A DNA stretch of 31,908 nucleotides from a virus, in the IMG/VR virus record IMGVR_UViG_3300003873_000039, positions 1 to 31,908 of that record. One strand, 5' to 3'. Position 1 is the first letter of the stretch; each line of letters starts with the position of its first letter. Positions 2,451 through 30,671 of the stretch are shown piece by piece. The position numbers and the translations under genes were made by a program. The notes under the pieces are model-generated. The model had not been told where the DNA came from and did not search any database. It saw nothing but the letters and a program-made list of their open reading frames with translations.

Positions 2451-5400
2451 TTATGCTCCCCACAAGGTCATATTTAGTCTCTGTCTATCCCAGTGGGTAT
2501 CTTTTGCCATCATTATCATTCGATGTGGCCCAGGATCGCCGCCGGGTAGCTCATTGCTTTCAAACATTACAAGATCGCCCGGCTCTAAACGAAGCAGTCG
2601 CATGTTAGATTCACATTGAATAATTCGCCGACCATCTTTATGCCGTGCAAGATAGTCGCTCGAAATCAAATCAAGCTCAGACAACGGTACATTCCATTTG
2701 TCGCGAAATTCGTTCATCACAACAACTTTGTAATCATCAATTGACTGCGCATCAAAAACAGCTTCACCATCTGCGAAATTGGAAGTGTTATTTCCCAGAC
2801 CGTCCCAGGCTGTCAGCGTTATTGCCCCGTTTTTCAAATCTGACCAGCCGCGCTTGTAGTGAACTTTTTCAGAGATGTCGCTGTCTGTAATAATCTCAAT
2901 CGGCATATCAGTCGAAAGAGGTTCGACAACAAGTGAGATTTTTCCTTTTCGCATAACAAATTGAGCTTCAAGAATGTAAGCAAGCTCAGCCAGCATGGCA
3001 TCAGCAGATGTTGGCTTTTCTATAATGCGACTCGCAGTACGATTCGGAAAACGAGTTTTGGCATTCACGATTGAATCAAGATCGATTCTGTTTGTCTGCA
3101 CGTTTATTCTGTTTGTAAATATATCGATAATTATATCTGCGACATGCCATTCGACTCCGCCATTTGTTCCTGACGTGTAATCAACAGGCATCCAGATCGC
3201 GCCGGTTTTCTTCCATGTTACATTATCAGAACCGGGCAAGATATTTGTGTTCGCGACAAGGGCAGACCATGCCGAAGTCCCGGAAATGATAGTGTCACCG
3301 ATTTTGTAAGCTTTCGTGCCTGACCAAGATGGGTGCTTAACATTCGGGATTTTCACATCTTTCAAGTCAAGCGGGTCTTGAATGATAAGTGTGTATTTCC
3401 CTGACGCGTATGACATATCAAGAACAGTTCCCGCGTAAACATCAACAGACGATTCAATGTCAGCATAACCAAATCGAATAACAACTTCAGCACCTAGAAG
3501 CTTTTTAGACATCAGGGCATCAATATGACGATCAGCAACAAAAGTGGCAGTCGCTTTACCAACCATGCTTGTTGCGATTTTGGTTTTTAGCTGAGCAGGT
3601 GATATGCGAACATCAGCCAGAGCTTTCACACCACCTTTTCTCAGCCGCTTGTATGTTTTCGGCATCAAGGGAAGCTGCCAAGGCATCGGAAATGCTGTGT
3701 AATATTCAGTACCAAGCGTTGTCGAATGAGTCCCAATTACAACAGGAGAAAGCCTAAAACCCACACCAACTTTACCGATTTCAGGTGCTATATCATTAGA
3801 TGAATTGGAAGTAAGTTCGATTTTTATTTTCCAATACCTGTCAGCAGGTAGCGTTTGAGTTTGCGCAAAAATCGTATCATACGTTCCGAAAAACGTCAGA
3901 TTTGCAGTACCCGCCGCCGCTGCAACTACAGGATCAGCAGTATGCCACAGCGATAGCTTAGCAGTAGTGCCAGCCGGAACTATGTCGATAAGCTCAATTG
4001 CACCATCAGTGATTGGAACTTGATTAACATCAAGAGAACGCACAAGCGAACCGGCATCAGCATAGCCCTCATTCCCGCCAAGAGAAAAACCATCCTGACC
4101 GCTGACACGGATATGCCATGGCGATTTCAGTACAGTAAAAGCACCCACCGAAATTGTAGCAGCATATGTAGCCACGCCGCCCTGAGCACCGCCCATGGCA
4201 TGAATATCCGGTTTACTGTACCCAACTTCAAGAGAGTACGACCGGGAGCGAATTAGTGAAGCTCCAAAGCCGACAACAGTAATAGAACTCCAGTCCGACA
4301 CATTCACCGAAAATGTTATTTGTTTTCCAATCTGATTGCCTTTTTCATCAAGAAAACGGGCATACCAACCAGGAAAAATATTGCCCGAATGTTTGGCTAA
4401 TATGACAAGCTTATTTGCAACGATTGTCGCGTTAGATTTGAATTTAAAAATCTGGCCAGGTTGGTCAATATCTGTCACATATTCATAAGAATCATGAACA
4501 TATTTACGACCTTTCCAAGAGAATTTATGATGATAATGATCAATAACCCTGCCCTGCCATTTGCTCACCCAAGATTTGACAGGCGTGTAATCAAGTGGCC
4601 GCTGAAACATACCAGCAGCCAAACCCATCATATACGCGCTGCCGATTTTATACATCTGACCCAGCGGCCCGATTGTTCCCGCTGAGCTTCCGACTTCCCA
4701 TATTACAGCATCAGCAGACTGCAAAAAGTCGTTCTTATCAGTTGAAGCAAAGTAAACGCCATCGATGTGATTGAAAGCCACGAAACTGCCCTGTGCAGGC
4801 GTTTGAATAAGTTTCCAAGCTGCGCCAGTCGCTGAAGTGTAGAGCTGCCCTGCATTCCCCCTCACAAGCCACAGCCCACCAGCATATTTACTGACAGACA
4901 TCGTGAAACCATTCGGGATAGCCATCGCAGTAAATGAAGCTCCTTCATCCGTGCTGTATGCTGAAGCCTGGGTGCCGTGCAGAATCACGTTAGCCCCGGC
5001 AACCCCCATGCCGTATCCAGTTGTCCCAACTCCATACAAATAATTCCAAGTTACAGCATCAGTTGAATTATAAACCTTGCCGCCATTTGTCATCATGAAA
5101 AATTTAGAATTACCCGCGCCAAGCCCAACAATATTACCGCCGCTAAAAAACAAACCGCCTGCAATGCTCCAATTTATTCCGTTCGAGCTGGTGTAAGTGT
5201 AATATACACCACCTGAGAGGCCCATCGCTATAAACCCTTTAGACGGTGAATATGCTATGCGCTGAACAGTACCTGACAGAACTTGAGTGAAGTTTATGCC
5301 ATCAGTTGAACGCTGAATGCCACCTGACACGCGGTAAATGATGCCACCATATTCGACAGTAGAACGATAATCCCCGGCTTTTATATTCTGCCAGACCGGC

Positions 5401-5642
5401 TTTATAAAAATTGATGTGGGTTCGACAAGATTTCCCGGAGAAAGCGTTATGCTTCCCGGCCTTCTATCAAAATCAATGTTCACATCACTGGCAACATCAG
5501 GATCATTCACGCCCACCCAATCGAATTTCTGATCAAGCTTCGCGCTTGGGCCTCTGTCAGCGTAAATATCAAGCCACATAGCAGGATCAACAGCTTTGCG
5601 ACTTCCCGCCCGGTTCAAAATATCTTGCTGAAGTTCAAGCAT
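2451..5642 (-). CDS. Large tail-tip protein with beta-propeller domain
   Basis: A 1063-residue protein. Residues 1-80 hold a conserved-looking start (MWLDIYADRGPS). Residues about 95-345 form a run of repeats with degenerate Asp-box signatures (STDGINF, SSNGINW, STDAVTW), expected to fold as a beta-propeller. The middle is beta-rich. The last 400 residues (SADAMLAELAYILEAQF..., ending MTLWGA) resemble C-terminal hub segments of siphovirus central tail proteins. Its likely place is at the distal tail, contacting the host. It overlaps the next propeller gene by 1 nt (TAATG). It is the largest gene in the window, as the tail-tip gene usually is. Confidence 0.7.
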   Translation of the reverse strand: MLELQQDILNRAGSRKAVDPAMWLDIYADRGPSAKLDQKFDWVGVNDPDVASDVNIDFDRRPGSITLSPGNLVEPTSIFIKPVWQNIKAGDYRSTVEYGGIIYRVSGGIQRSTDGINFTQVLSGTVQRIAYSPSKGFIAMGLSGGVYYTYTSSNGINWSIAGGLFFSGGNIVGLGAGNSKFFMMTNGGKVYNSTDAVTWNYLYGVGTTGYGMGVAGANVILHGTQASAYSTDEGASFTAMAIPNGFTMSVSKYAGGLWLVRGNAGQLYTSATGAAWKLIQTPAQGSFVAFNHIDGVYFASTDKNDFLQSADAVIWEVGSSAGTIGPLGQMYKIGSAYMMGLAAGMFQRPLDYTPVKSWVSKWQGRVIDHYHHKFSWKGRKYVHDSYEYVTDIDQPGQIFKFKSNATIVANKLVILAKHSGNIFPGWYARFLDEKGNQIGKQITFSVNVSDWSSITVVGFGASLIRSRSYSLEVGYSKPDIHAMGGAQGGVATYAATISVGAFTVLKSPWHIRVSGQDGFSLGGNEGYADAGSLVRSLDVNQVPITDGAIELIDIVPAGTTAKLSLWHTADPVVAAAAGTANLTFFGTYDTIFAQTQTLPADRYWKIKIELTSNSSNDIAPEIGKVGVGFRLSPVVIGTHSTTLGTEYYTAFPMPWQLPLMPKTYKRLRKGGVKALADVRISPAQLKTKIATSMVGKATATFVADRHIDALMSKKLLGAEVVIRFGYADIESSVDVYAGTVLDMSYASGKYTLIIQDPLDLKDVKIPNVKHPSWSGTKAYKIGDTIISGTSAWSALVANTNILPGSDNVTWKKTGAIWMPVDYTSGTNGGVEWHVADIIIDIFTNRINVQTNRIDLDSIVNAKTRFPNRTASRIIEKPTSADAMLAELAYILEAQFVMRKGKISLVVEPLSTDMPIEIITDSDISEKVHYKRGWSDLKNGAITLTAWDGLGNNTSNFADGEAVFDAQSIDDYKVVVMNEFRDKWNVPLSELDLISSDYLARHKDGRRIIQCESNMRLLRLEPGDLVMFESNELPGGDPGPHRMIMMAKDTHWDRQRLNMTLWGA

Positions 5643-7234
5643 TAAATACTCTCTTCAAGTTGAAGTTTTAGTTTTCTAAATTCCGGAGTGATGAACGGGC
5701 TTTCAACTTTCCGACTCACATCACGAAACAAAACAGGCGAGCCAGCGTTTGTATCATCAAACTGAATAAAAAACGGATTTTTCGCTGTCAAAACAGTTGT
5801 TTTAAGTGTCTTTACATCAATTGATTCTTGAGAATCAAGAGCATTCCAAACCGGATTTACATGAATAGCATCAAATCTTCGCGACACGAATGCACGCCCG
5901 TTCGCGCTTGTAAATGTTGTCGCCTGGATTGCCAGCGACTCAGGATCGATTCCTAAATCAGGAGGGGCAATAGTGATAGCTGGCCCAGCGTATAGCTCCG
6001 GAATATTCACATCAGCTCCGGGGGTCTGTCCTGTAATCGTCAAGTTATAACGATAAAGATATGTCCGCCATGAAATATCAGTGATTCCCGCTGAAACAAA
6101 TACGCCCGCTCCAGTTTCGAGCGAGTAAACATCATAACCAATGTTATCAGCAGCAACCCACAGATCACCGTCAATCGATGACACTGAATCACCAGCATTA
6201 CCAGCGGCCATGTATGTTGAACCGTCATACGCAATGGCATTAAATACCTTGAGAACATCTTGATGAACGACAGTCCATAAGATGCCATCATATGACGCAA
6301 TCACACCGCCTGTGCATGCTGCAAAGAAACGAAGGCCATCAAACATCAGACCATTCAGCGAACCGATTCCAGCAACCGCCATGTTGGCTGAATTCCAGTT
6401 TGTGCCGTCATTCGAGTAAAGCGAATCGACAGCAGAACCAATAACGACCCTTGATATGCCTATCGTTATACTTAACAGGTTATCACTCACACCGGAAACA
6501 GATGGAAGCCATGACACACCATCCCCGGAAACAAGGATTACACCGGCATCACCAACACTGATGAAAGTCTCATTCACATTATGAAATAGAACATCATTGA
6601 GAGCAGTAGCTATTCCGCTTACTTGTGAAATCCAGTTGATGCCGTCTGACGATACAGCAACGAAACCGGCAAGTCCTACAGCCACATAAACGCCGTTTCC
6701 GTATGTAATTCCGCGCAATGCAGGAGCACCAGCAATCGCTACGCTTGTCCACACGGTTCCATCTATAGAATGATAAACAAGGCCGCCATCCCCAACAGCA
6801 ATCCAAGCCCCATTTATGAATTTCACATTGTGAACAGAAGATGCCAAGCCGATAGCCTGCCAGCCCGCCGGGATAATTGGGGTATGTGCTGAAACAGGGA
6901 AAACCTCTGAAGCTGATTCAGGAGTTGTGATTTGTGAATTCAGTATGCTTGCCCATCCTTGAGCTGTGAAAGCGTCAAGCTTTACAGTACCTGAAGCGGG
7001 CTTGAATCCGATTGAGTCATTTCTGTTCGCGCCTATTAGGATATAATCAATCAGTGGGGAAACAACAGATAGCGACAGCTTTACGCTGCCAGAACCATCG
7101 GCAATCGGTTTGAATGTGCTTGATGTATCACCATCGCTAAGATTAGATAGCGGATATGCGGGGTCTTCAGTCCCAATAATTAGTGATACAAGTGATGCAG
7201 CAATCTGATTATCGTGAAAAAATCTAACACTCAT
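5642..7234 (-). CDS. Tail protein with Asp-box beta-propeller
   Basis: A 530-residue protein. Between about residues 120 and 375 there are six regular repeats with an S-x-DG-x-x-W signature (SIDGTVW, SSDGINW, SGDGVSW, SNDGTNW, SYDGILW, SIDGDLW). These Asp-box repeats typify sialidase-like and related propellers. The flanks are beta-rich. Glycan or surface binding is a reasonable guess. I see no catalytic signature, so enzyme activity is not claimed. The gene lies between tape measure and tail-tip genes, which suits a distal tail role. TAATG overlaps occur at both ends. Two dispersed 15-bp motifs lie inside (6572-6586, 6821-6835). Confidence 0.7.
   Translation of the reverse strand: MSVRFFHDNQIAASLVSLIIGTEDPAYPLSNLSDGDTSSTFKPIADGSGSVKLSLSVVSPLIDYILIGANRNDSIGFKPASGTVKLDAFTAQGWASILNSQITTPESASEVFPVSAHTPIIPAGWQAIGLASSVHNVKFINGAWIAVGDGGLVYHSIDGTVWTSVAIAGAPALRGITYGNGVYVAVGLAGFVAVSSDGINWISQVSGIATALNDVLFHNVNETFISVGDAGVILVSGDGVSWLPSVSGVSDNLLSITIGISRVVIGSAVDSLYSNDGTNWNSANMAVAGIGSLNGLMFDGLRFFAACTGGVIASYDGILWTVVHQDVLKVFNAIAYDGSTYMAAGNAGDSVSSIDGDLWVAADNIGYDVYSLETGAGVFVSAGITDISWRTYLYRYNLTITGQTPGADVNIPELYAGPAITIAPPDLGIDPESLAIQATTFTSANGRAFVSRRFDAIHVNPVWNALDSQESIDVKTLKTTVLTAKNPFFIQFDDTNAGSPVLFRDVSRKVESPFITPEFRKLKLQLEESI
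6572..6586 (+). promoter_or_regulatory. Dispersed 15-bp motif ATTCACATTATGAAA
   Basis: Inside the propeller tail gene; one of two oriented copies that face against local transcription. Encodes FHNVN. Confidence 0.65.
6821..6835. promoter_or_regulatory. Dispersed 15-bp motif TTTCACATTGTGAAC
   Basis: Symmetric copy in the same tail gene; encodes VHNVK. Confidence 0.65.
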
Positions 7235-11803: not shown

Positions 11804-12271
11804 TTATGCTCTCGAAGTTCGCCGCGTCTGCATCTTCACGCGCTCGATTTCCTCAAAGTTCCCATCGCCATCGAAATCATATAATGAAAGCAAGCGGATC
11901 GTATTCCATTCAGCTTCATACATTTTCTCAAAGTGAACAGATTTACGCCCGAACGAATCGCCATCAGCGGCCATATCGGATGACAGCTTAGGCAGGATGT
12001 ATGCGGACAACGCCCGATAGCATGTGATATTCACCATCAGTGCCGCGTTAAGTCTGTCAGGCTTAATTGCAGGCAACATCAATGCATCAAGCACCTGACT
12101 TTCGCGACCCATGCGACTTGATGCCGCTTGAGTCCACCAGCTCACCGTCAGACGGTTTAGAACATCATTGGAGGCCCGTTGCAGATCATTGGTGTTGTCA
12201 AGTCCGTACTCAGTTAAGTCCGGGACAAATTCAATCAAATCAGCCTGGGTCGCGAAAACAGGAGCCACCAT
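11804..12271 (-). CDS. Head-tail connector (adaptor) protein
   Basis: A 155-residue, mostly helical protein with the pattern of gp6-like/DUF1320-like adaptors: an early Asp/Glu-rich start (ATQADLIEFVPDLTEYG), a helix with RASNDVLNRLTVSWW, and a long helix near NAALMVNITCYRALSAYIL. It ends in a basic segment. Such proteins form the ring under the portal and stop DNA leakage. It overlaps the previous gene by one base (TGATG) and precedes the tail terminator. The assignment rests on context as well as pattern. Confidence 0.6.
   Translation of the reverse strand: MVAPVFATQADLIEFVPDLTEYGLDNTNDLQRASNDVLNRLTVSWWTQAASSRMGRESQVLDALMLPAIKPDRLNAALMVNITCYRALSAYILPKLSSDMAADGDSFGRKSVHFEKMYEAEWNTIRLLSLYDFDGDGNFEEIERVKMQTRRTSRA
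11924..11938. promoter_or_regulatory. Dispersed 15-bp motif, one core mismatch
   Basis: TTTCTCAAAGTGAAC in the connector gene. Could be chance. Confidence 0.4.
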
Positions 12272-12753
12272 CAGTCAGCCTTTTTAGCTGTTTTGCGGCG
12301 AGCGCGGGGCTTCTTTGCAGCTTCAACAGGGGCTTCAGGAGCCACTTCAGCTTCTTCAACAGCGACTTCAGGAGCCACTTCAGCTACTTCACCGGACTCG
12401 TCAGAGGCTTCAGGAGCCGTTTTAACGGGTTCAGCGGTGCCATCACCTGCATTTTCAGTTTCAGCTTCACCAGCGTCAACAGGTGCTTCCTCAGCAGCTA
12501 CTTCAGTCGCTTCGCCAGACGCATTCTGCGCATCTGCCACTTCAAGTGAATCCACATCACTTCCGTTTTCAGATTCAGCAACAGTGTCTTCATCTTCGAT
12601 CTCCACTTCATGACAGTAGGCAAGCGCAAGGTGTTCACACTCTTTCTTATTTCCAGAAAAATAGGCATGGCCATCATCTTCGACTGTGAAGACTTTGCCA
12701 CCGCGCTGGATTTCCATACCGATAGGGAAAGGCCCTTTGATTTTTAATTTCAT
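12271..12753 (-). CDS. Head-region protein with acidic linker and basic tail
   Basis: A 160-residue protein. Residues 1-50 are a small beta domain (KLKIKGPFPIGMEIQ..., KVFTVEDDGHAYF). Residues about 52-142 are low-complexity, Glu/Ala/Val/Pro-rich repeats (VAPEVAVEEAEVAPEAPVEA). The last 15 residues are strongly basic (KKPRARRKTAKKA). The basic end looks able to bind DNA, the acidic part to act as spacer. The gene follows the capsid gene across a hairpin. Its ATG lies inside a dispersed 15-bp motif (12748-12762). It may be a capsid decoration or connector-associated protein. Function unknown. Confidence 0.65.
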   Translation of the reverse strand: MKLKIKGPFPIGMEIQRGGKVFTVEDDGHAYFSGNKKECEHLALAYCHEVEIEDEDTVAESENGSDVDSLEVADAQNASGEATEVAAEEAPVDAGEAETENAGDGTAEPVKTAPEASDESGEVAEVAPEVAVEEAEVAPEAPVEAAKKPRARRKTAKKAD

Positions 12754-12838: not shown

Positions 12839-13780
12839 TTAGTTGCTTATGTCAGTCAGACGGGCAAGGCCTTTGCGATTGAAGCATGCAAAGTTCGCAT
12901 ACATCTTGACGCGATATAGCTCAGCGTCCTGATTTTCCATTTCGCCAATCGCTTTCACAGTGATACCCGCAGGGATTGTTTCAGGATGAATACCAGCGCA
13001 ACCAATCTTGCGTGAACCGTCATCGAACACACCAGCATAGACCGAAGCCAATGCACCACCGGCAAGAGCAGCCCCGCCCGCAGTTTCAACGATAGACAGA
13101 AAATCATTTCTGAAAACCGGAATCCCTTCAAAAGCCAGCACAGTGCGACCATCCGGGAGTGTAACCTGTTCCAAGGTGTTACCCGGCATAGCCCGCAGCA
13201 ACGCTTTGTAGCTGAAGAAAGTGCGCTTCGGCATAGCGATGAAGTCAACTTCACCATCCTTGGAAACCACGTTCCCGCACAGATTATCCAGATCGTCAAA
13301 GGTAAGTGCGCCACCGCCTGCACCAGCGTTTACACCGGCAATGGTCTGACCTACATCAGACATACCCGCAAGGGAGTTCATCTGAGGTAACGCACCATTG
13401 CCAGTTGCCATACCACCCTGAAACTGACGGCCAACAGATTTCGCTTTAGACGAAATTTCACGAGCAGCGGAATCAACACCAGAACTGCCAGATGTTGCAA
13501 CTTCCAAGCCATCAAGCTCAGCATCACCAACAATTTTTGTCGATTGGAAATTGACAGGAATGACTTGCGATGGATTTTTATGAGTGATCGTATCACCAAC
13601 ATTATAAAAACCAGAATCACCCATTACAAGTTCACGATTCACAACGATTGCTTGTCCCTGATAACCGTCAAAGGGCAATGCGCCAAAAAGTGGATTGACA
13701 GCAATGATGTCTTCCGCAACGCCTGCAACGATGTCATCGTTTATATATTTGGCAGCCTCTGCCAGTGTTTGAACAGCCAT
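12839..13780 (-). CDS. Major capsid protein
   Basis: A 313-residue protein that follows the scaffold gene (across the cargo cassette) and has the composition of HK97-fold capsid proteins. It has an N-terminal helix (TLAEAAKYINDDIVAGVAEDII), an E-loop-like stretch (NPSQVIPVNFQSTKIVG), a helix (AAREISSKAKSVGRQF), and a P-domain-like region (FIAMPKRTFFSYKALL). It ends with strands and helices (ENQDAELYRVKMYANFACFNRKGLARLTDI). There is no cleaved N-terminal delta domain, which suits a separate scaffold. The SD AGGAGG is very strong, as expected for the most abundant virion protein. Confidence 0.85.
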   Translation of the reverse strand: MAVQTLAEAAKYINDDIVAGVAEDIIAVNPLFGALPFDGYQGQAIVVNRELVMGDSGFYNVGDTITHKNPSQVIPVNFQSTKIVGDAELDGLEVATSGSSGVDSAAREISSKAKSVGRQFQGGMATGNGALPQMNSLAGMSDVGQTIAGVNAGAGGGALTFDDLDNLCGNVVSKDGEVDFIAMPKRTFFSYKALLRAMPGNTLEQVTLPDGRTVLAFEGIPVFRNDFLSIVETAGGAALAGGALASVYAGVFDDGSRKIGCAGIHPETIPAGITVKAIGEMENQDAELYRVKMYANFACFNRKGLARLTDISN

Positions 13781-14317: not shown

Positions 14318-14572
14318 TCATCTTTGGCATTCGACTATCTTTTTTGCTGCATATTCAACGTCAGCGCATTCGAGTTTCTTTGCAGTGTAAAGTGCAGCAA
14401 TAGGGGCGCAGACAGACCGCACATTTTTTCGCGGGGATTTCCTACCATTTTCCCAGTCTGAAATGCGCTGGAATGGAATTGGATCGCTTCGCCCAAGCTC
14501 TTTAGCTAACCAAACCCCAAAAGCTTCTTGAGATAGATTGAGTGCTGTTCTTGTTGTCGATATAACATTCAT
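14318..14572 (-). CDS. XRE-type HTH protein (cargo cassette)
   Basis: An 84-residue protein whose residues about 8-50 read as a Cro/CI-type helix-turn-helix (LNLSQEAFGVWLAKEL...IPFQRISDWENGRKSPRKNV). The C-terminal 30 residues are helical with two cysteines. It has no protease or dimerisation domain of the CI type, so it is a small one-domain regulator. Its ATG overlaps the stop of the previous gene (ATGA). It may control the cassette's own promoter or be the antitoxin-like partner of the upstream genes. Both ideas are inference. Confidence 0.75.
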   Translation of the reverse strand: MNVISTTRTALNLSQEAFGVWLAKELGRSDPIPFQRISDWENGRKSPRKNVRSVCAPIAALYTAKKLECADVEYAAKKIVECQR

Positions 14573-14718
14573 TGTTGCTCCTGATTCCCACCATGCTCAT
14601 ATTCTTCAATAAATTCATCAAAAGAACATCCGCACAAATTTCCAACGAAAATATAAGCATTTAAATTAACATTGAATTCATAAACACCGTCATTAACTAA
14701 TCTATATTGATCTCCCAT
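14569..14718 (-). CDS. Small acidic hypothetical protein (cargo cassette)
   Basis: A 49-residue protein (MGDQYRLVND..., ending GGNQEQQ), acidic, with a CGC pair and SFDEFIEEYEHG near the end. The SD GGAG lies 9 nt before the ATG, and the stop overlaps the HTH start by 4 nt. Strongly AT-rich codon use matches the gene upstream and differs from the head genes. The family is not recognised. The tight packing supports a real gene. Confidence 0.65.
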   Translation of the reverse strand: MGDQYRLVNDGVYEFNVNLNAYIFVGNLCGCSFDEFIEEYEHGGNQEQQ

Positions 14719-14720
14719 TT

Positions 14721-15071
14721 TTATTTCTCCATTTTTACATATTCATATACACATAAATCTAAGTCATCATTCAGAAATGTAGTTCCTAAATTTGGTGTAT
14801 TTTTCTTGAAATCATTGCTTATTTTTGTGTGTAGAATTCTATTTTGATATGCATACATTCTCTCCACTTTTGCATGTAAGCTTGCCCATGAAATTTTATT
14901 TTTTTTGATAAAACTACTTATTGCAGACAACAGTTCATCATCTGAATGTGAGCCGTGTATAATTTCACTTATGATCATGTGATTGTTGTCTTGCTCTCTT
15001 GATGCACATTGTGAATTTGAAAGAAGTGATATTTTATTCTTCAGACATTCAAGATCGGTTACATTTTCCAT
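14721..15071 (-). CDS. Hypothetical protein (first gene of cargo cassette)
   Basis: A 116-residue, largely helical soluble protein of unknown family. The middle (SDDELLSAISSFIKKNKISWASLHAKVERMYAYQNRIL) looks like a helical bundle. Codon use is AT-rich, unlike the scaffold and capsid genes on either side, which suggests recent transfer. The SD GGAG precedes the ATG by 9 nt. A promoter at 15132-15159 sits just upstream. As the first gene of an independently transcribed cassette inside a head operon, it is a candidate for a lysogen benefit such as exclusion of other phages. That is inference. Confidence 0.7.
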   Translation of the reverse strand: MENVTDLECLKNKISLLSNSQCASREQDNNHMIISEIIHGSHSDDELLSAISSFIKKNKISWASLHAKVERMYAYQNRILHTKISNDFKKNTPNLGTTFLNDDLDLCVYEYVKMEK

Positions 15072-15262: not shown

Positions 15263-16003
15263 TTACGCTGCCTGTTTTGCTTTCAGCCCTCTTGCAATTC
15301 GGCTTTCGCCAGACACGTTACCACCTGGAGCTTTTCCACCTGTTGCTCCAGTTGAACCAGCACCGCCGCCAGATGCCTTAACAAAATGCAGATTCTCATC
15401 CAGAAAGGATTTCACATAACTTGCAACGGCCATCGGTTTGCCTGATTCATCCAGCGCAACTTTCCCATCAGCACCAAGCACTTCGACTGAGCCAGCATCA
15501 TTCAGACGCATCTTGGGTTTGAGTAGCGATGTGATTTGAGCTGGCTTGATAGCGTTGTTACTTGATGCCGCTGTGACGATTTCATTATCAATCAGCACTT
15601 CAGACAAACGCGATTCAAGCCCCTTGATTTTACCATTGAGGGATTCAACCTGAGTCGCGTGACGGCGTTCGATTTCGGCTTTTGCTTCATCGAACTTGCC
15701 CTTTGATGTCAGGTCATCTTGCTTGCGCTTATCAGCATCACTAATCAGATTCTTGATAGCATCTGCATCCAGATCGCCCAAAGTGTCCTTGAGTTCACGC
15801 AATGCAACGCGGTTACTTGCAGCATCACTTCGAGCGGACTTCAATTCATCCTTGAGCCGTGCGACTTCATCAGAGCCGCCCTTATCGCCATCGCCGCCCT
15901 TGTCGCCTTCACTATCACCAGAACCACCGGCAATATTCGGAACAACACCACCATCAGGCATGTGCCAGTACCTGCCAATCAAAATCGGTTTATCAACATT
16001 CAT
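15263..16003 (-). CDS. Scaffold protein
   Basis: A 246-residue protein. A Gly/Asp/Ser-rich low-complexity stretch near residues 26-45 precedes a long coiled coil (about 46-140, LKDELKSARSDAASNRVALRELKDTL...). A helix-rich segment and a basic C-terminus (SRIARGLKAKQAA) follow; the basic end would touch the capsid protein. This matches GP20-like phage scaffolds. The gene directly precedes the capsid in operon order, interrupted only by the cargo cassette. SD GGAGG is 8 nt before the ATG. It should guide procapsid assembly and leave the head, possibly with help from a protease. Confidence 0.75.
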   Translation of the reverse strand: MNVDKPILIGRYWHMPDGGVVPNIAGGSGDSEGDKGGDGDKGGSDEVARLKDELKSARSDAASNRVALRELKDTLGDLDADAIKNLISDADKRKQDDLTSKGKFDEAKAEIERRHATQVESLNGKIKGLESRLSEVLIDNEIVTAASSNNAIKPAQITSLLKPKMRLNDAGSVEVLGADGKVALDESGKPMAVASYVKSFLDENLHFVKASGGGAGSTGATGGKAPGGNVSGESRIARGLKAKQAA

Positions 16004-16512: not shown

Positions 16513-16552
16513 AACCTTTCGCAGACAAATAATGTCTGCAATTCGTAAGGTT
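16513..16552 (+). terminator. Hairpin between convergent genes
   Basis: AACCTT-tc-GCAGAC ... GTCTGC-7nt-AAGGTT forms a two-part stem between the plus-strand cargo gene and the minus-strand gene end. There is no T-run, so intrinsic termination would be weak. Confidence 0.4.
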
Positions 16553-16884
16553 CACAAAGTCTTAATGTCCGCCCCTTTGTTCGGATCATCGTTTTGAATG
16601 GCTTTCGCTGGCTTAACTGATTTAAGCTCCGGCGATTTCATCCCCATTGTTGATAACAGTGCTTTGAATTGGGATAGGTCTGACAGCGGATCATCTAAAA
16701 CAAATTCAGGGGAATGAGCGTGCTCACTGTATATCTCCCCATCTTTCATTGCGCTGTCCATTTTTGCATTGACCAGCCGTACGATGTCTTTATTCCCGGA
16801 AATCTGAGCAGTCTCAGTATCAAGTTTTATAGCCCCAAGCTTTACCCATTTTCCTGCGATGTATCTTTCAATTTTCAGCTTCAT
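16552..16884 (-). CDS. Hypothetical head-region protein
   Basis: A 110-residue protein with an N-terminal beta-rich part (MKLKIERYIAGKWVKLGAIKL) and a charged, flexible C-terminus (KSVKPAKAIQNDD). The ATG overlaps the stop of the MuF gene by 4 nt. The small N-terminal domain followed by a disordered tail echoes the protein at 12271-12753. No function is recognised. Its place between MuF and scaffold suggests a head-assembly role. Confidence 0.6.
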   Translation of the reverse strand: MKLKIERYIAGKWVKLGAIKLDTETAQISGNKDIVRLVNAKMDSAMKDGEIYSEHAHSPEFVLDDPLSDLSQFKALLSTMGMKSPELKSVKPAKAIQNDDPNKGADIKTL

Positions 16885-18458
16885 CCGTGCTCCAGTATGC
16901 CAAGCGTCATATCAAACATTTCCCGATCAATCATGTATAAGGCTTCGAAGTTTACGCTATCACCTCCAAGCAAATATTCAAAGGCAATGGTCATCACTTC
17001 TTTAGCACCTGTCTTCCCATATTCGCGCCCCATGTACGGGGTAACGTAGTGATCTTCGCGGGCTACTTCGTGAATTTTATATTTTTTATTCCCTGTCAGG
17101 TCGCGCAACCGTTTCAGCGGGTCGCCAGTTGTTCTTGACGCGTGTTCGGCTGTGAATACGGCATCAATATCAGGGAAAACATATTGCAGGCGGTGAGTGT
17201 ACTCATGGACAGCCGTACTCATGCGGCCTGCTAAAATGTAGCTATCACCGGCCTTCACACGTTCAATACCAAAGCCCCCGCCGATATGCCCGCGCTTTCC
17301 ATCGTATTCGCTTTTGATAACTTTATGCCAACCGCGCCCACGGCTATATCTTGTATGCGTATCGCCAGCTTGATTTGATTTTGATACCCACGCATCAGGG
17401 AACAGTGTTGATGCTTTACGCACCATCGGAGCTGCCTTGCCTGAGCCTACAATTTTTGCTTGCACGTTATCGAATGAACGACCCTTTTTCAGGTGTTTGA
17501 ATAGGGCAGCGATAAAGGCTTCACGGTTATCAGATGTCATCGGATCGTCAGGAGCCATGCCTATTTCTTTCTGCAAAGTATGGCGCAAGTTTTTGCCAGC
17601 TTTTTTCATAGAAGCCGGAGTGAGTTTTACTTTTGCCGGGGTTTTAGGTTTAGCTTTAGGCTCAGGAGCTGGCTTCGTTTTCTTTGTTGTCCCAAGAGCT
17701 GCTATCCAATGATGCCGGCAATTCCAGCCCCCACGCGTAATAAATGGATCGCCCGCCTTCTTTCCCTGCCATTTTTGATTTGACCAGGCTTTGATTTCAT
17801 CTTGTGAAAATGACTTGCCATGATGTTCAACACACCATTTCCTAGTGTCCTGCACACTTGACCCAAAATAGGTAAACTCTTTCACGCCAGCTTCAGTCGC
17901 TTTCTTTTTGAATAGCGTTGAATCCAGTTCCATCAAGCCTGTATGGGCGTATGTGTTGGCATATGCTGAAAGTGGCTGGCCATGCGCTGTCACGCCACCA
18001 ACCAGCATTTGAGATATGTCAGCAGCCAGTTCATCAAATGGAGTCCCGGCTATTGCTGCTGTGTAAATACTATTCCCGATGTCGCTTGAGTATTGCTGCC
18101 CAAGCGATGCCAGTGATTGAAATGTGTCCTGCTGATACGCTTCAATGATACCTGTATCAGCTTCGACAAACTGAATATCAAAGCCCCCGGCTTTCAGACG
18201 CGCTTTGACGTACTTCGCAGCCTCTGTGAATTCATCAGTCGAAGCCTTGGCGGCGGAAAGGTAGGGAGAAAGCTGCTGATATATCTTTTGGCGCATATCC
18301 ATGGCAGCGGCAAGATTCAGATCGGTTGTCATAATCGCGCCAGTGCTGTCCGTCTTCAGCTTCCCCATCAAAGACAGTATGCGACGTTCAACAACCACAA
18401 GCGATGCCTGTAGCCTCTTCTCATTGCGTGTAATGGCTTGATCAAGTGGAGATGGCAT
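16881..18458 (-). CDS. MuF-type minor head protein fused to a putative zinc metallopeptidase
   Basis: A 525-residue protein. Residues about 1-255 are a Mu gpF/SPP1 gp7-like head morphogenesis domain, seen in DTRKWCVEHHGKSF (204-217) and WNCRHHW (245-251). A Lys/Pro/Ala linker (258-285) follows. The C-terminal domain holds AVHEYTHRLQ with HEYTH at 418-422, the zincin HExxH signature. Glu487 in AKEVMTIAFEYL is a candidate third ligand. MuF proteins sit inside the head near the portal and may be injected with DNA. The fused enzyme could mature the head, act in the host, or be a polymorphic-toxin-like effector. A 17-nt overlap joins it to the gene upstream. Confidence 0.75.
   Translation of the reverse strand: MPSPLDQAITRNEKRLQASLVVVERRILSLMGKLKTDSTGAIMTTDLNLAAAMDMRQKIYQQLSPYLSAAKASTDEFTEAAKYVKARLKAGGFDIQFVEADTGIIEAYQQDTFQSLASLGQQYSSDIGNSIYTAAIAGTPFDELAADISQMLVGGVTAHGQPLSAYANTYAHTGLMELDSTLFKKKATEAGVKEFTYFGSSVQDTRKWCVEHHGKSFSQDEIKAWSNQKWQGKKAGDPFITRGGWNCRHHWIAALGTTKKTKPAPEPKAKPKTPAKVKLTPASMKKAGKNLRHTLQKEIGMAPDDPMTSDNREAFIAALFKHLKKGRSFDNVQAKIVGSGKAAPMVRKASTLFPDAWVSKSNQAGDTHTRYSRGRGWHKVIKSEYDGKRGHIGGGFGIERVKAGDSYILAGRMSTAVHEYTHRLQYVFPDIDAVFTAEHASRTTGDPLKRLRDLTGNKKYKIHEVAREDHYVTPYMGREYGKTGAKEVMTIAFEYLLGGDSVNFEALYMIDREMFDMTLGILEHG
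17795..17809 (-). promoter_or_regulatory. Dispersed 15-bp motif TTTCATCTTGTGAAA
   Basis: Inside the MuF gene, oriented with transcription; encodes FSQDE. Confidence 0.75.
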
Positions 18459-18939
18459 TTTTCAATTCATCCTTGAGAATTTTAGAAAGTTGTTTGCGTC
18501 CATCACTACCAAGCCCGAAAAAGTTACGCTTAGGAAGCTTGCCGCCGCCCGTGTTATGGCCATGCGCCTTAATGGCCTCTTGCGTTCGTGTGAATCGGAT
18601 AACAGCTCTGTCACGCCCGAAAACACGATGCTGAAGAGCAGACATCATCCGCCCTGAATCATGTAGCCAGCCGCCGCCCCGCGTTGCCTTGAACTCACGA
18701 TAGCCACCGGGGTAAAAGCGCGAATGCTTTTTGTTGCTGGATTTGATGTAAGCTGGCTTGCTCGAATAAGGCGCGAACCTTGACCCATTCACATCAAGTC
18801 CTTTCTCTGTCCGCACCTTGATTATCGTCACCGCTTTTGCTGCAACAGCTCCCATGATCTTCCTGGTCAACAGGGATCGCTTCATGTGATGAAGTTTAGC
18901 GATTACCTCCTGTTCACCGACCACGCGGGCTTTAAGCAT
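18442..18939 (-). CDS. Mu gpG / HK97 gp10-like neck protein
   Basis: A 165-residue basic protein with features of phage virion morphogenesis proteins: an early helix (EVIAKLHHMKRSLLTRKIMG), NGSRFAPYSSKP, GWLHDSGRMMSALQHRV near residues 89-105, and KRNFFGLGSDGRKQL near the end. Such proteins act at the head-tail junction or in tail completion. It overlaps the portal gene by 8 nt and the MuF gene by 17 nt, so the three are made together. An unusually perfect palindrome (CTTCATGTGATGAAG) lies inside, at 18880-18894. Confidence 0.65.
   Translation of the reverse strand: MLKARVVGEQEVIAKLHHMKRSLLTRKIMGAVAAKAVTIIKVRTEKGLDVNGSRFAPYSSKPAYIKSSNKKHSRFYPGGYREFKATRGGGWLHDSGRMMSALQHRVFGRDRAVIRFTRTQEAIKAHGHNTGGGKLPKRNFFGLGSDGRKQLSKILKDELKNAIST
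18880..18894. promoter_or_regulatory. Dispersed 15-bp motif CTTCATGTGATGAAG
   Basis: Symmetric variant (CAT-N3-ATG); all six half-site base pairs are complementary. In the gpG-like gene. Confidence 0.5.
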
Positions 18940-20347
18940 TGACTACATCCACAAGATTAGGAACTTTGACTTCATCATTGATAGCTTTCATGACTTCAGG
19001 ATCAGTGTCACCCAGCACGCGTTTGGCTACCCTGCCCCGGATTTCAGCATCAAAGGTTTTCGAGTTCACAAGCGGTTTAGCTTTCATCGCGTTATCAATT
19101 TCATTCGCAAGATCGCGCACACCGAATTTGCGCGGATAATCAACTTCGCCGTCAAATACCTGTTCTTCCCATGCTGCAAACAGGCGAAAAATCCCCATCT
19201 CAGCATTTTCACAGCCCTCGCCTTTCTCAGCCAGGATGCTGTTTAATTGTTGGAAAGTGATTTCAAGTGATACGCCTGATTGCACTTTTGTTGACTGCGC
19301 ATCAGTGCCACCAGTGCGAGCCAGGGCGCGAATATCATCAACCAGGGCGAGCCTCCATTCACGGATTTCTTTTAGTGAAGAGTGAGGCGGTTCCATCCAC
19401 TCCCATTTTGCAGTTGGATTGCGCGGATCGAATTCAAGCACATTACCGCTGCCAACCTCAATTTCAGCTTCATTGCCGCCCATAGTCTGTTCACGCGGTC
19501 CCTGAAGCATTGGGAAAGCAGTATTCTCAATGATTTCATGCGCATCAGAATCGATGTAAAAGATGCGGCGATTGATGTCAGCAATGTCATTGATGTCAGA
19601 ATTGCCGATGAATAGGCTTGATGTTTTACGATTTGCAAGCATCACAAACGGAATTTCCCCAAGAGTGTTCACGCCTTCATCAATCAGCTTAGCCTCTGTA
19701 TTGCCGTTGTTTTTCTTGTCTTCAACGCCATACAGCTTCCAATCTGTTCGAGTCCAAACGCGATACAGCTCAAAGCCATCGATCTCAGCCCCGTAAGTGT
19801 CTTCAACCATTTCTTCATGTAGAACAAGCTTGCTCAGAACAGGCCGGCCATTCTTGCGCACGAACTCAAAATTGATGATATGTTCAGGACTATACCTGAC
19901 CAGATACGGCCTAACGCCCGCAGCAACCTCTTCAGCCTTCGTCGTGAAGTTAGTTGCTGGCTTATCAAGCACCATGCCCACAAGGCCAGTAATAGAAGCC
20001 ATGCGAGCTGTTTCGCGCATCCAGGCTGAGAAATCAGTGCCATTAAAGTCGCAATCTTCCATGAAAGCATCCAGATTTTTATTACCTGCCAGCACACCGA
20101 ATTCGCGGGCGATTGTTTCTTTGAACAAATATGAAATGTAAATATCAATTACAGGCGCGGAATAGTTCACATATATAGCTTGCTTTAACCTGCGCATATA
20201 TTTCTTTTTCTGTTCGCGGGGATGCCGTTCAAGATAGCCAGCTTTGCGATATAGATCACCACCTTTGTATGACAGGTTCAGGAATTCCCATCGCTCAAGC
20301 ATTTCCTCAAAATCTTCATGCCGTTTGGTCAGTTGTTTTGCTTTCAT
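18932..20347 (-). CDS. Portal protein (DUF4055-like)
   Basis: A 471-residue protein from ATG 20347. A longer frame from 20371 is less likely, because 20347 has SD TAGGAG overlapping the terminase stop and avoids an overlap. It is helical, with the portal pattern of a long clip/stem and crown: YVNYSAPVIDIYISYLFK near the start, GEIPFVMLANRK, DINRRIFYIDSDAHE, and late GVSLEITFQQLNSILAEKGEGCE. It forms the dodecameric ring for DNA entry and docks with the terminase encoded just upstream. A dispersed 15-bp motif covers the start codon. Confidence 0.8.
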   Translation of the reverse strand: MKAKQLTKRHEDFEEMLERWEFLNLSYKGGDLYRKAGYLERHPREQKKKYMRRLKQAIYVNYSAPVIDIYISYLFKETIAREFGVLAGNKNLDAFMEDCDFNGTDFSAWMRETARMASITGLVGMVLDKPATNFTTKAEEVAAGVRPYLVRYSPEHIINFEFVRKNGRPVLSKLVLHEEMVEDTYGAEIDGFELYRVWTRTDWKLYGVEDKKNNGNTEAKLIDEGVNTLGEIPFVMLANRKTSSLFIGNSDINDIADINRRIFYIDSDAHEIIENTAFPMLQGPREQTMGGNEAEIEVGSGNVLEFDPRNPTAKWEWMEPPHSSLKEIREWRLALVDDIRALARTGGTDAQSTKVQSGVSLEITFQQLNSILAEKGEGCENAEMGIFRLFAAWEEQVFDGEVDYPRKFGVRDLANEIDNAMKAKPLVNSKTFDAEIRGRVAKRVLGDTDPEVMKAINDEVKVPNLVDVVNA

Positions 20348-20356
20348 TATGTGAAC
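20342..20356 (-). promoter_or_regulatory. Dispersed 15-bp motif over the portal start
   Basis: TTTCATTATGTGAAC; sense reads TAGGAGTTCACATAATGAAA, so the motif fills the SD-ATG spacer and start codon of the portal gene. Confidence 0.7.
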
Positions 20357-20358
20357 TC

Positions 20359-21627
20359 CTATTTCAGCCAAACTTTGCGGGCTTGTATGATTCGTGAAAC
20401 CGGGAACAAGTATTCAACAGGATAGCCAAGAGCGTCTGTTAAATGCGTCATGTGATCCATTTTCCTGATTCCCTCATGTGTTAGCCTTTCGCAGTAGCTG
20501 CGAAGCTTTGAGCAGCCCGGATCAAACGTAAGAGAGCCATCGCCGAGCTTCGTGTTGACTGCATTGTATCTGTCCCTAATCGCTGGATGTGCAAGATGTG
20601 CAAACACTTGCAGGCCCAGATTTTCAATGATTATATGGTCAGTGACACCGCCTGCCGAAGCAGTATGGCGAGCAGAGCCAGCCGGGTCAGGGTAAGCGCA
20701 AACGATCCCAGGCCATCTGCCTGTTGCGTATTTGATCATATCTTCCGTGTCTGAATTCGGCAGCTCTATTTCAGCAACAACATGCATATGGCCTTCATTA
20801 ATCCAGAAAACGCATGCAGCCATCGGATTTACATTGAAATCCATGCCCAATCGCAACGGAATTCCAGGAGGTGTAATTACAGACTGTAAATTTTTACACT
20901 TGTCAAACTGATGATATATCCGCCCGGTTGAAAGATTGATAAATTCGCCATTCATATAGGCCTGCACAGCCTTTTCATCGTAAGCTTTTCTCAGTGTATC
21001 AATGAAATCAGGTGGCAAGGCCAGGTTGCCGGCTGTCTTCGCTCTAACCATTTCCAGTAAATATTTTCCAGCGTCTTCGCCTTCAATAATGTCATAGCCC
21101 CAGTTGAGTTCTTCCGGGGTTCCTGTCAGCCAGATTTCACGAAGCCTGGAACGCGGGTCACGCACACGGGCAAGCATTTGGTCAAATACTGGCTTATCCA
21201 TGATGAACGGTTCATCAAGGTAAGCGGCGGCAAGGTTCGGGCCTTTGAGTGCGTCAGGGTTCTCCCCTGAGCCAATCCATAGCGTGCCTTGCCGTCCTTT
21301 ATACCTGATACGGAATTCCCAATCAGATGGCCTCCAGTCATAATCGATGCGCCGGCCATCCAATAGAGCTTTGATAGTAGGGATTGTGGTGCGCTTAGCC
21401 TGCCGATATGACGGGGAAACCCCCATGATAGGTACTGGAGCATTGAAGATGCAGGAAGCAATCATACGCTTGCTGCCGATCATTGTTTTGCCGGAACCGT
21501 AACCACCAACAAGGGCTTTGATGAATGCCTGCGAGTTCCACAGGTTCCGCTGATAATCCCACATCCCGCCTTTAATCACCCGTCCATCGAATAGCACCGG
21601 GTCATCTTTGCGCCAAAATGAAGACAT
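20359..21627 (-). CDS. Terminase large subunit
   Basis: A 422-residue protein. The N-terminal ATPase has Walker A GGYGSGKT (41-48), Walker B AYLDEP (135-140) and a coupling motif LTGTP (167-171). The C-terminal RNase H-like nuclease shows acidic residues in GMDFNVNP (Asp263), YPDPAG (Asp314) and HLTDALGY (Asp398). It pumps and cuts DNA at the portal. The start overlaps the small subunit stop (TAATG). Length is normal for compact siphovirus terminases. Packaging type (cos or pac) cannot be decided here. Confidence 0.9.
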   Translation of the reverse strand: MSSFWRKDDPVLFDGRVIKGGMWDYQRNLWNSQAFIKALVGGYGSGKTMIGSKRMIASCIFNAPVPIMGVSPSYRQAKRTTIPTIKALLDGRRIDYDWRPSDWEFRIRYKGRQGTLWIGSGENPDALKGPNLAAAYLDEPFIMDKPVFDQMLARVRDPRSRLREIWLTGTPEELNWGYDIIEGEDAGKYLLEMVRAKTAGNLALPPDFIDTLRKAYDEKAVQAYMNGEFINLSTGRIYHQFDKCKNLQSVITPPGIPLRLGMDFNVNPMAACVFWINEGHMHVVAEIELPNSDTEDMIKYATGRWPGIVCAYPDPAGSARHTASAGGVTDHIIIENLGLQVFAHLAHPAIRDRYNAVNTKLGDGSLTFDPGCSKLRSYCERLTHEGIRKMDHMTHLTDALGYPVEYLFPVSRIIQARKVWLK

Positions 21628-29331: not shown

Positions 29332-29532
29332 ATGCCTAAATGGGTTTTGATTCCCAAATATGCCGAAATGTCTGGATACAGCGTTAAAGCGTTATATCAC
29401 AAAAAAGATAGTGGCGTATGGCTTGAAAATGTCCATTGGCGTAAGGCCCCCGATGGAAGGATTTTTATAAACATTTCAAGGGTTGATGAATGGGTAGAGA
29501 GAGGCAGCACAACACTGAGGCGCGTGGCGTAA
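29332..29532 (+). CDS. xis: Excisionase
   Basis: A 66-residue protein starting one base after the previous stop. It reads MPKWVLIPKYAEMSGYS..., then ENVHWRKAPDGRIFINISRVDEWVE, the layout of phage excisionases with a winged-helix DNA-binding fold. It would bend attP/attR and steer the integrase to excision. It overlaps the integrase by 43 nt, as in many xis-int pairs. Confidence 0.75.
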   Translation: MPKWVLIPKYAEMSGYSVKALYHKKDSGVWLENVHWRKAPDGRIFINISRVDEWVERGSTTLRRVA

Positions 29533-30671
29533 GGTCACGCGATGGCCTGTTATATATAGATTTTCAGTTTAAAGGGAAGAGATGCCGGGAATGTCTCGGC
29601 ATCGATGTAACTAAAGCAAACATCAAATATGCTTCGCGGCTCAGGTCTGCGATTCTGCATGAAATATCTGTTGGGACTTTCAGTTATCGCGCTCATTTCC
29701 CGGATAGTAAAAATGCTGTCATTTTCGCTGTAAGCGGAAAATGCGACATCTTCACAGGCGATGCGCTCAAGGATTATCTGAAGGTTAGAAAGCGCACGCT
29801 GGCAAAGTCAGCATATGATGGCTATGAGTCCGCAATAAGAATCCATCTTGTCCCAACTTTCGGGAACATCAAATTGCGTTCGCTTTCAACATCGCTGATT
29901 CGGACATGGATTGCTGATGATCTATCTCACTTAATGAATAAGACAATCAATAACATTCTGACACCATTGCGCGGCATGCTTGATGATGCTTTTTCAGACG
30001 GACTCATTGACAGCAATCCTATGAATCGGATTCACAATATGAAACCAAAGACACGGGAACCTGAGCCATTCAGCCCGGAAGAGTCACAGAGGATCATTGA
30101 TAAGCTGTCAGGACAGGATCGCAATATCATTCAGTTTGGATTCTGGAGCGGCTTACGCATCAGCGAACTTATCGCGCTTGAGTGGAGTGATGTTGATTTA
30201 GTGAATGAAGTTGCATCAATCCGACGGGCAAGCGTCCGTGGCGACGAAAAAGGGACAAAGACCGAAGCGGGTTCGCGTGAACTCAAGATATTACCTCCGG
30301 CCATGGAAGCATTGCAAAGCCAGCGTCAATATTCACAGCTTGCGGGCGGTAGAGTGTTTCTGAATCCACGCGAAAACGCGCCATGGATCAATGATGTCCA
30401 ATTGCGTTCCAGGGTTTGGAAATGTGCGCTGAAGCTGTCTGGTGTGCGTTATCGTAATATGTACCAGATGCGGCATTCATACGCCTCATTCTTACTGTCA
30501 GCCGGCGAAAACCCAGCATGGGTCGCTAATCAAATGGGGCATACTAATATGAGCATGACGCTTAAAGTTTATGCACGATGGATACCCAGCGTCGATCCCA
30601 ATGCTGGCAAGGTTGCAGCGGCTATGGCTGAAAAGTTATCAACAAAGGTTGTGGATAAGTCGCATAAATAA
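29490..30671 (+). CDS. int: Tyrosine integrase
   Basis: A 393-residue protein. The N-terminal 60 residues (RGVRSRDGLLYIDFQFKGKR) are a DUF3596-type arm-binding domain. A SAM-like core-binding domain (about 85-170) follows. The catalytic residues are Arg223 (SGLRISEL), Lys257 (KTEAGS), Arg328-His329 (YQMRHSYAS), His351 (QMGH) and Tyr361 (KVYARW). It should recombine attP near 31.75 kb with a host tRNA gene. The stop is followed by an endonuclease gene rather than directly by attP. A 15-bp motif at 30030 encodes IHNMK. Confidence 0.9.
   Translation: MGRERQHNTEARGVRSRDGLLYIDFQFKGKRCRECLGIDVTKANIKYASRLRSAILHEISVGTFSYRAHFPDSKNAVIFAVSGKCDIFTGDALKDYLKVRKRTLAKSAYDGYESAIRIHLVPTFGNIKLRSLSTSLIRTWIADDLSHLMNKTINNILTPLRGMLDDAFSDGLIDSNPMNRIHNMKPKTREPEPFSPEESQRIIDKLSGQDRNIIQFGFWSGLRISELIALEWSDVDLVNEVASIRRASVRGDEKGTKTEAGSRELKILPPAMEALQSQRQYSQLAGGRVFLNPRENAPWINDVQLRSRVWKCALKLSGVRYRNMYQMRHSYASFLLSAGENPAWVANQMGHTNMSMTLKVYARWIPSVDPNAGKVAAAMAEKLSTKVVDKSHK
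29925..29939 (+). promoter_or_regulatory. Dispersed 15-bp motif, weaker copy
   Basis: TCTCACTTAATGAAT, two mismatches, inside int and oriented with transcription; encodes SHLMN, the same phase as the 30030 copy. Confidence 0.4.
30030..30044 (+). promoter_or_regulatory. Dispersed 15-bp motif ATTCACAATATGAAA
   Basis: Identical to the copy upstream of the repressor. It lies within int, oriented with transcription. Confidence 0.75.

What the first reader, a model, noticed from the sequence alone, without database searches (positions are those of the whole stretch)
16881..18458. MuF head protein carrying a putative zincin (HEYTH) domain
The C-terminal 270 residues hold HEYTH at 418-422 and a candidate third ligand Glu487. 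MuF proteins of temperate phages are known carriers of C-terminal toxin-like domains. This one could be an injected protease, a head maturation protease (no separate prohead protease is seen although a scaffold exists), or an effector in phage competition.
Basis: partly seen in the sequence, partly recalled or inferred. Interest (0 to 1): 0.75.

Follow-up and report, generated by a model that had tools for sequence, protein, structure and literature searches.

The report
Phage head protein carrying a protease
This phage fuses a zinc protease of an unnamed family to a protein of its head and pairs it with a small neighbouring gene, which looks like a weapon-plus-safety-catch carried in the virus particle rather than a part needed to build the particle.

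Summary
The gene is on the minus strand (16881-18458, 525 aa): an N-terminal MuF-type head domain, then a zincin domain (about 279-525). H418, E419, H422 and E487 are invariant in 53 aligned homologues. Of these, 42 are matched only by the search pattern lacking HExxH, and all 42 carry HExxH. AlphaFold2 gives pLDDT 93.7; the best solved matches are Pro-Pro endopeptidases and lethal-factor-type proteases (VIA Z 8-9).

A head-maturation role is unlikely. Relatives of this head module have MuF without any C-terminal domain, near-identical MuF N-domains occur with and without a zincin, and the closest zincin relatives have a separate prohead protease. The zincin is 34-46% identical to domains on unrelated MuF N-domains, so it moves as a cassette.

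In 52 homologous loci a small, mostly acidic ORF sits there; 38 of 52 end in a hydrophobic residue plus Tyr/Phe (background 1.4%). [quoted passage not shown]

Best reading: a MuF polymorphic-toxin-type protease effector with its own immunity/inhibitor protein. Substrate, delivery and inhibition are untested.

The parts
16881..18458 (-). MuF head protein with C-terminal zincin, 525 aa
   Evidence: MuF by PF04233 (sub-threshold) and phrog_324
17694..18458 (-). N-terminal MuF-type head domain (residues 1-255), ends in a GGWNCRH motif
   Evidence: about 23-33% identical over its length to MuF genes of HTVC202P/112P/026P and L091-L168; dN/dS 0.058 against L001
17625..17693 (-). Lys/Pro/Ala-rich linker (residues 256-278)
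   Evidence: sequence
16884..17624 (-). zincin domain, modelled region residues 279-525
   Evidence: AlphaFold2 pLDDT 93.7, pTM 0.91; PPEP and lethal-factor folds, Z 8-9
17193..17207 (-). HEYTH, residues 418-422: two zinc ligands and the catalytic Glu
   Evidence: invariant H, E, H in 53 homologues; independent check
17034..17036 (-). Tyr475, invariant; one of two candidates for the transition-state Tyr
17019..17021 (-). Tyr480, 52 of 53; the other candidate transition-state Tyr, seven residues before Glu487
16998..17000 (-). Glu487, third zinc ligand of gluzincin type
   Evidence: invariant in 53 homologues
16552..16884 (-). partner ORF, 110 aa, overlaps the MuF stop as ATGA with a GGAG upstream; candidate immunity/inhibitor protein
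   Evidence: overlap; conserved position in homologous loci; family alignment; dN/dS 0.267
18442..18939 (-). context: tail completion/Neck1 or virion morphogenesis protein
   Evidence: phrog_26 1.5e-7, PF05069 sub-threshold
18932..20371 (-). context: portal protein
   Evidence: phrog_145 9e-81
20359..21627 (-). context: large terminase
   Evidence: PF03237 4e-18
15263..16003 (-). context: scaffolding protein
   Evidence: phrog_206 2.9e-25
12839..13780 (-). context: major capsid protein
   Evidence: phrog_212 2e-42
29490..30671 (+). context: tyrosine integrase, so the phage is probably temperate
   Evidence: PF00589 3e-16, PF12167 5e-23

Best explanation
The gene encodes a MuF head protein whose C-terminal domain is an active-looking zinc protease carried as cargo, in the manner of MuF polymorphic toxins. 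Proposed course: the N-terminal MuF domain is built into the capsid at the portal (inferred from MuF biology). The zincin travels with it and enters the next cell with the DNA (inferred), where it cleaves an unknown host or rival-phage protein (inferred). In the producing cell the translationally coupled 110-aa partner binds and blocks the protease as an immunity protein (inferred from gene order and co-occurrence). Shown here: the predicted fold and the conserved zinc-site residues, that the domain is dispensable for and exchangeable between head modules, and the near-constant partner gene.
For: Invariant H418/E419/H422/E487 and near-invariant Y475/Y480; confident zincin model matching PPEPs and lethal-factor-type proteases. 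Cassette exchange: the window N-domain has no significant match (best E 0.8) to the N-domains of the phages and prophages with the closest zincins, while the C-domains are up to 46% identical. Dispensability: HTVC202P and HTVC112P have the same head order with a short MuF; HTVC026P carries a different, lethal-factor-like zincin plus a 60-aa ORF; L139/L143 (zincin) and L163 (none) have N-domains 89% identical. Partner ORF in 52 homologous loci including prophages in bacterial genomes, in Flavobacterium phage pippi8-1 and after the tandem zincins of PaV-LD; 17/17 extended against 1/41 short MuFs, p 9e-14. The zincin-partner pair also stands alone in a bacterial contig, L177. The C-domain and partner change faster than the terminase, portal, scaffold and capsid proteins, still under purifying selection. 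MuF toxins Apk2 and Bxa with tested, adjacent immunity proteins that block the toxin are published (PMC12226406, PMC11699363).
Against: No toxicity, proteolysis, packaging or inhibition has been shown for this family. The window partner is only weakly similar to the other partners (hmmsearch E 0.005 in a 53-sequence set), is not acidic (net +1) and lacks the terminal aromatic residue (ends DIKTL). The partner could instead be a chaperone or a substrate. A few loci lack an obvious small ORF directly behind the gene; several of these are explained by tandem zincin genes with the partner behind them, but L040, L073 and L077 remain unexplained.
Confidence: 0.62

Rival explanations
1. Head maturation protease: the zincin cuts the scaffold, capsid or portal during assembly, replacing the usual prohead protease.
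For: No Peptidase_S78, Mu-like_Pro or ClpP-type protease in the window, and a scaffold gene is present. PHROGs labels a matching family (phrog_595) 'head maturation protease'.
Against: Pelagibacter phages with the same order (terminase, portal, MuF, scaffold, capsid) have a short MuF without the domain. The closest zincin relatives carry a Mu-like prohead protease too: L008, L009, L010 above the cut-off, L011 weakly; five further records have Peptidase_S78, one a ClpP type. An actinophage record annotated 'capsid maturation protease' matches in the MuF region, not the zincin, so the phrog_595 label is weak evidence for the zincin.
Confidence: 0.12
2. Self-processing protease: the zincin cuts its own MuF linker or the small partner, releasing a fragment before or after injection, as proposed for MPTase domains of polyvalent proteins.
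For: Lys/Pro-rich linker between the domains. The DdrB precedent of processing before packaging is discussed in PMC5512222. PPEP-type folds cut Pro-rich sites (names of the matches).
Against: No further effector domain follows the zincin in the window protein. The zincin also occurs without a MuF domain (L003, L177, L081), still with a partner gene.
Confidence: 0.15
3. Counter-defence enzyme: the injected zincin destroys a host immune protein; the partner keeps it off until injection.
For: Fits an injected head-borne enzyme; protein delivery by T4 Alt and MuF fusions is established or proposed (PMC5512222, PMC5576092).
Against: No specific defence target is indicated by any result here. It differs from the best explanation only in target.
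Confidence: 0.2
4. Structural relic: the zincin is catalytically dead and serves as a DNA- or portal-binding module.
For: None specific among the tool results.
Against: All catalytic residues are invariant across very divergent homologues.
Confidence: 0.03

Closest known systems
MuF polymorphic toxins (Jamet et al. 2017, PMC5576092), tested members Apk2 (PMC12226406) and Bxa (PMC11699363)
   Same: MuF N-domain in the head gene cluster of a probably temperate phage, variable C-terminal enzyme, small ORF directly downstream. Apk2 and Bxa have non-enzymatic immunity proteins that block the toxin.
   Different: The enzyme here is a zincin of a clade absent from Pfam and NCBIfam; the partner is unrelated to Pfam families and has its own C-terminal signature in most members. 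Toxicity is untested. Jamet et al. report metallopeptidase domains in 20% of MuF toxins; whether this clade was among them could not be checked (supplements not readable here).
Pro-Pro endopeptidases (PPEP-1/Zmp1, PPEP-2, PPEP-3) and anthrax-lethal-factor-type zincins
   Same: Best solved fold matches: Z 8-9 over about 140-149 residues, rmsd 3.2-3.8; catalytic Glu plus Tyr architecture.
   Different: Only 10-15% identity; no sequence match to Pfam ATLF; longer stretch between HExxH and the third Glu; presumed intracellular phage cargo rather than a secreted protein.
Zincin-like MPTase domains of polyvalent proteins (PMC5512222)
   Same: Zincin fold in proteins of phages thought to be injected.
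   Different: No Pfam match to those families in the 55 homologues scanned; single MuF fusion with a dedicated partner gene.
Phage prohead proteases (S78, Mu gpI, ClpP types)
   Same: A protease encoded in the head cluster.
   Different: Different fold and catalytic class; co-occurs with them in several relatives.

Membership tests
Zincin/gluzincin metallopeptidase | HExxH on a helix | tested here: met
   invariant H, E, H; helix 135-149 of the model
Zincin/gluzincin metallopeptidase | third ligand Glu on a following helix | tested here: met
   E487 invariant, first residue of helix 209-219 of the model; distances not measured
Zincin/gluzincin metallopeptidase | metal-dependent proteolysis | not testable with these tools
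   needs purified protein
MuF polymorphic toxin | N-terminal MuF domain | tested here: met
   PF04233 E 0.00029 but below the curated cut-off, phrog_324, position between portal and scaffold
MuF polymorphic toxin | C-terminal enzymatic domain that recombines between different N-terminal parts | tested here: met
   C-domain up to 46% identical, N-domain no significant match, in the closest relatives
MuF polymorphic toxin | small immunity-sized ORF directly downstream | tested here: met
   immunity function itself not tested
MuF polymorphic toxin | encoded by a temperate phage | tested here: met
   integrase in the window; prophage-like copies in bacterial contigs
MuF polymorphic toxin | toxic to bacteria and neutralised by the neighbour | not testable with these tools
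   needs expression assays
M34 (lethal factor / PPEP) peptidases | fold | tested here: met
   VIA Z 8-9 over 140-149 residues, 3.2-3.8 A; Foldseek E 6e-3, prob 0.99 for PPEP-3
M34 (lethal factor / PPEP) peptidases | sequence membership (Pfam ATLF) | tested here: not met
   no ATLF match in the window protein at E 1 or, at E 0.01, in 55 homologues
Polyvalent-protein MPTase | match to its profile | tested here: inconclusive
   no Pfam match at E 0.01 in 55 homologues; the 12 published clades could not be compared directly
Prohead (head maturation) protease | required for, and constant in, its head module | tested here: not met
   same module without the domain; separate prohead protease beside it in relatives

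The most novel reading that the evidence does not exclude
The partner family consists of dedicated inhibitors whose free C-terminus (most often -[VI]-[VIL]-Tyr-COOH after an acidic stretch) is inserted into the zincin active site like a cleavage product, giving a mobile protease-inhibitor pair used in phage heads and also kept as a stand-alone pair in bacterial chromosomes.
Probability: 0.28. Interest if true: 0.75.

Novelty: new variant of a known kind. Interest (0 to 1): 0.55.

Why it matters
It adds a widespread, unnamed protease clade to the enzymes that phages fuse to MuF, with a partner gene that makes the toxin/immunity idea directly testable by co-expression. It corrects a likely misreading (and a database label) that such proteins are head maturation proteases. 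If the partner tail plugs the active site, it would be an uncommon kind of natural inhibitor for a lethal-factor/PPEP-type fold. It also offers a simple route to the open question of what head-borne phage proteases do in the infected cell.

Tried and rejected
1) Sequence search of solved structures with the domain profile gave only chance-level hits (best E 0.03), so kinship to PPEP/lethal factor rests on fold alone. 2) The partner model is poor (pLDDT 63.5; beta-hairpin plus helix, C-terminal tail of low confidence), so no fold search was run on it. 3) A search for zincin positions that vary with the presence or absence of a terminal aromatic residue in the partner gave nothing beyond p about 0.002 over some 240 positions, confounded by relatedness; rejected as evidence. 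4) The wide alignment A2 could not be used for a genome scan; the narrower A1 was used. 5) PHROG 595 'head maturation protease' was considered as evidence for a head role and rejected. 6) No Pfam or NCBIfam family matches the C-terminal domain above its cut-off. 7) The partners matched no PHROG beyond one member each for three unnamed families, and no Pfam family beyond chance. 8) Relatives by genome kinship could not be drawn because the window is a virus record.

Full report
WHAT IS THERE. The finding's coordinates hold one open frame on the minus strand, 525 aa. Its first 255 residues are a MuF-type head domain: Pfam PF04233 reaches E 0.00029, under the curated cut-off; phrog_324 head morphogenesis E 5e-8; and it aligns end to end with the MuF-position gene of Pelagibacter phages. 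The gene lies between portal (18932-20371) plus a neck-type protein (18442-18939) and the scaffold (15263-16003) and capsid (12839-13780) genes. An integrase marks the phage as probably temperate. The record is a single 31,908-base virus contig.

THE ZINCIN. Residues 279-525 carry HEYTH (418-422) and E487. A viral-contig search found 80 loci and a genome search 11. In 53 aligned proteins H418, E419, H422, E464, D469, Y475 and E487 are invariant, Y480 is 52/53, R375 43/53. Because one search pattern contained HExxH, the 42 proteins matched only by the other pattern are the fair test: all 42 have HExxH. AlphaFold2 on a 52-sequence alignment gave mean pLDDT 93.7 and pTM 0.91; HEYTH sits in one helix and E487 opens a later one. 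The best solved matches are Pro-Pro endopeptidases (Z up to 9.0, rmsd 3.6, 149 residues) and lethal factor's catalytic domain (Z up to 8.5, 3.5, 140 residues), 10-15% identity; Foldseek gives PPEP-3 first, E 6e-3, prob 0.99. Z values of this size are moderate, but these two families fill the list well above unrelated rows and cover the catalytic core. In those families a Tyr lies seven residues before the third zinc ligand (own knowledge: PPEP-1 Y178/E185, lethal factor Y728/E735); in the window Y480 and E487 show the same spacing, though some homologues have insertions there. No Pfam or NCBIfam model covers the domain; PHROGs holds it in families without function (33618 matches all 55 homologues).

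NOT A HEAD-BUILDING PART. Pelagibacter phages HTVC202P and HTVC112P have the same order of terminase, portal, MuF, scaffold and capsid with MuF proteins of only 330-340 aa. HTVC026P has the same N-domain but a different zincin of lethal-factor type (PF07737 E 0.0008, sub-threshold) and an overlapping 60-aa ORF. In the wider N-domain family (L089-L168) most MuFs end within about 50 residues of the NCRH motif and others carry 220-960 more residues, usually with an HExxH of other types. Near-identical N-domains occur with and without a zincin: L139/L143 and L163, 89%; L126 and L138, 85% (those zincins are not of the window's clade). Conversely, the closest zincin relatives (L008-L016, L169-L174; C-domains 34-46% identical) have N-domains with no significant match to the window's (best E 0.8). 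L008, L009 and L010 have a Mu-like prohead protease above cut-off (L011 weakly), and further records have S78 or ClpP types (many records are fragments, so absences mean little). The window has none of the three, as is usual for scaffold-type heads that are not processed (own knowledge, for example P22 and SPP1). The PHROG label 'head maturation protease' on family 595 may stem from actinophage records such as the one whose 'capsid maturation protease' match lies in the MuF region; this source was not proven.

THE PARTNER GENE. The MuF stop codon overlaps the start of a 110-aa ORF (ATGA, with GGAG upstream). In the homologous loci an ORF of 60-125 aa follows within about -30 to +20 bases. Where it seemed missing, tandem zincin genes often come first and the small ORF follows them (PaV-LD, L019, L025, L037, L076). 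Of 52 partners, 47 are net negative and 38 end in a hydrophobic residue plus Tyr or Phe; 15 of 1,068 background ORFs end so, and none of the 17 small ORFs behind other C-extensions in the N-domain family (Fisher p 4e-8 against the 17). The annotated gp29 of Flavobacterium phage pippi8-1 fits too (70 aa, ends KEIY). The window partner ends in DIKTL, is not acidic, and joins the family only weakly by profile (E 0.005 in a set of 53), though its position, length and the aligned motifs (G at 30, PL at 66-67) agree. Within the N-domain family, 17 of 17 MuFs with a C-extension have a small ORF behind them against 1 of 41 short ones (p 9e-14; related sequences are not independent, but the contrast recurs in separate lineages such as L143 and HTVC026P). 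Jamet et al. reported the same trend overall: 89.4% against 25.5% (PMC5576092). The zincin and partner also occur as a pair without MuF: behind a different MuF gene (L081) and alone in a bacterial contig among housekeeping-type genes (L177).

EVOLUTION. Against the closest relative (L001), dN/dS is 0.058 for the MuF N-domain, 0.128 for the zincin region and 0.267 for the partner, with 0.03-0.06 for terminase, portal, scaffold and capsid: the pair is constrained but changes faster than the head proteins around it (the low-complexity gene 12271-12753 is similar to the partner, at 0.264).

HOW IT PROBABLY WORKS. Shown: the predicted zincin fold and zinc-site residues, exchange between head modules, dispensability in kin, and the coupled partner gene. 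Inferred: packaging at the portal, delivery with DNA, proteolysis of a target in the next cell, and inhibition by the partner in the producing cell. Two MuF toxins with tested neighbouring immunity proteins support the type of system: Apk2 with IapK, which occludes the active site (PMC12226406), and Bxa with Bsi and BAH (PMC11699363). The conserved free C-terminus of most partners suggests, but does not show, a product-like plug in the active site.

NOVELTY. MuF toxins with metallopeptidase domains are known as a group (20% of MuF toxins in PMC5576092). New here, as far as the libraries and papers searched show, are the zincin clade as a defined family, its partner family with a C-terminal signature, the tandem zincins in cyanophages, and the stand-alone chromosomal pair. 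Whether the clade was among the published 20% could not be checked.

Noticed in passing
L177:4299-5736: Stand-alone zincin (259 aa) with a 105-aa partner ending MIVY in a bacterial contig whose neighbours look like housekeeping genes (FlhB-, HpnH-, IspH-like by eye), directly after a small ORF that resembles XisI.
   Followed up: partly
L003:3227-5749, also L019, L025, L037: PaV-LD-type cyanophages carry two or three tandem zincin genes in the head cluster, several with an N-terminal Cys-rich motif instead of MuF, and one small partner ending DI[VI]Y (EIVY in L025).
   Followed up: partly
L088:2929-4927; L097, L098, L104, L113, L119, L143: MuFs of the same N-domain family carry other zincin classes (lethal-factor-like in HTVC026P), each followed by a different small ORF: further candidate MuF toxin/immunity pairs.
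   Followed up: partly
L081:1844-4569: A MuF protein with an ADP-ribosyltransferase-like C-terminus (by eye) followed by a separate zincin gene and partner: two candidate effectors in one head cluster.
   Followed up: no
window 14318-15071: An HTH gene (PF01381, sub-threshold) and a 116-aa ORF of unknown kind sit between scaffold and capsid genes; an HTH-type ORF is also present there in L001.
   Followed up: partly
window 30744-31643: LAGLIDADG homing endonuclease gene directly after the integrase (PF14528 2e-16).
   Followed up: no
window 2451-7234: Two adjacent tail-region proteins share repeated S-x-DG-x-x-W-type motifs, as in beta-propeller or BNR-like repeats.
   Followed up: no
window 16881-18458 (phrog_595 match): The PHROG family 595 label 'head maturation protease' may come from actinophage MuF annotations and could mislead annotation of MuF proteins.
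   Followed up: partly
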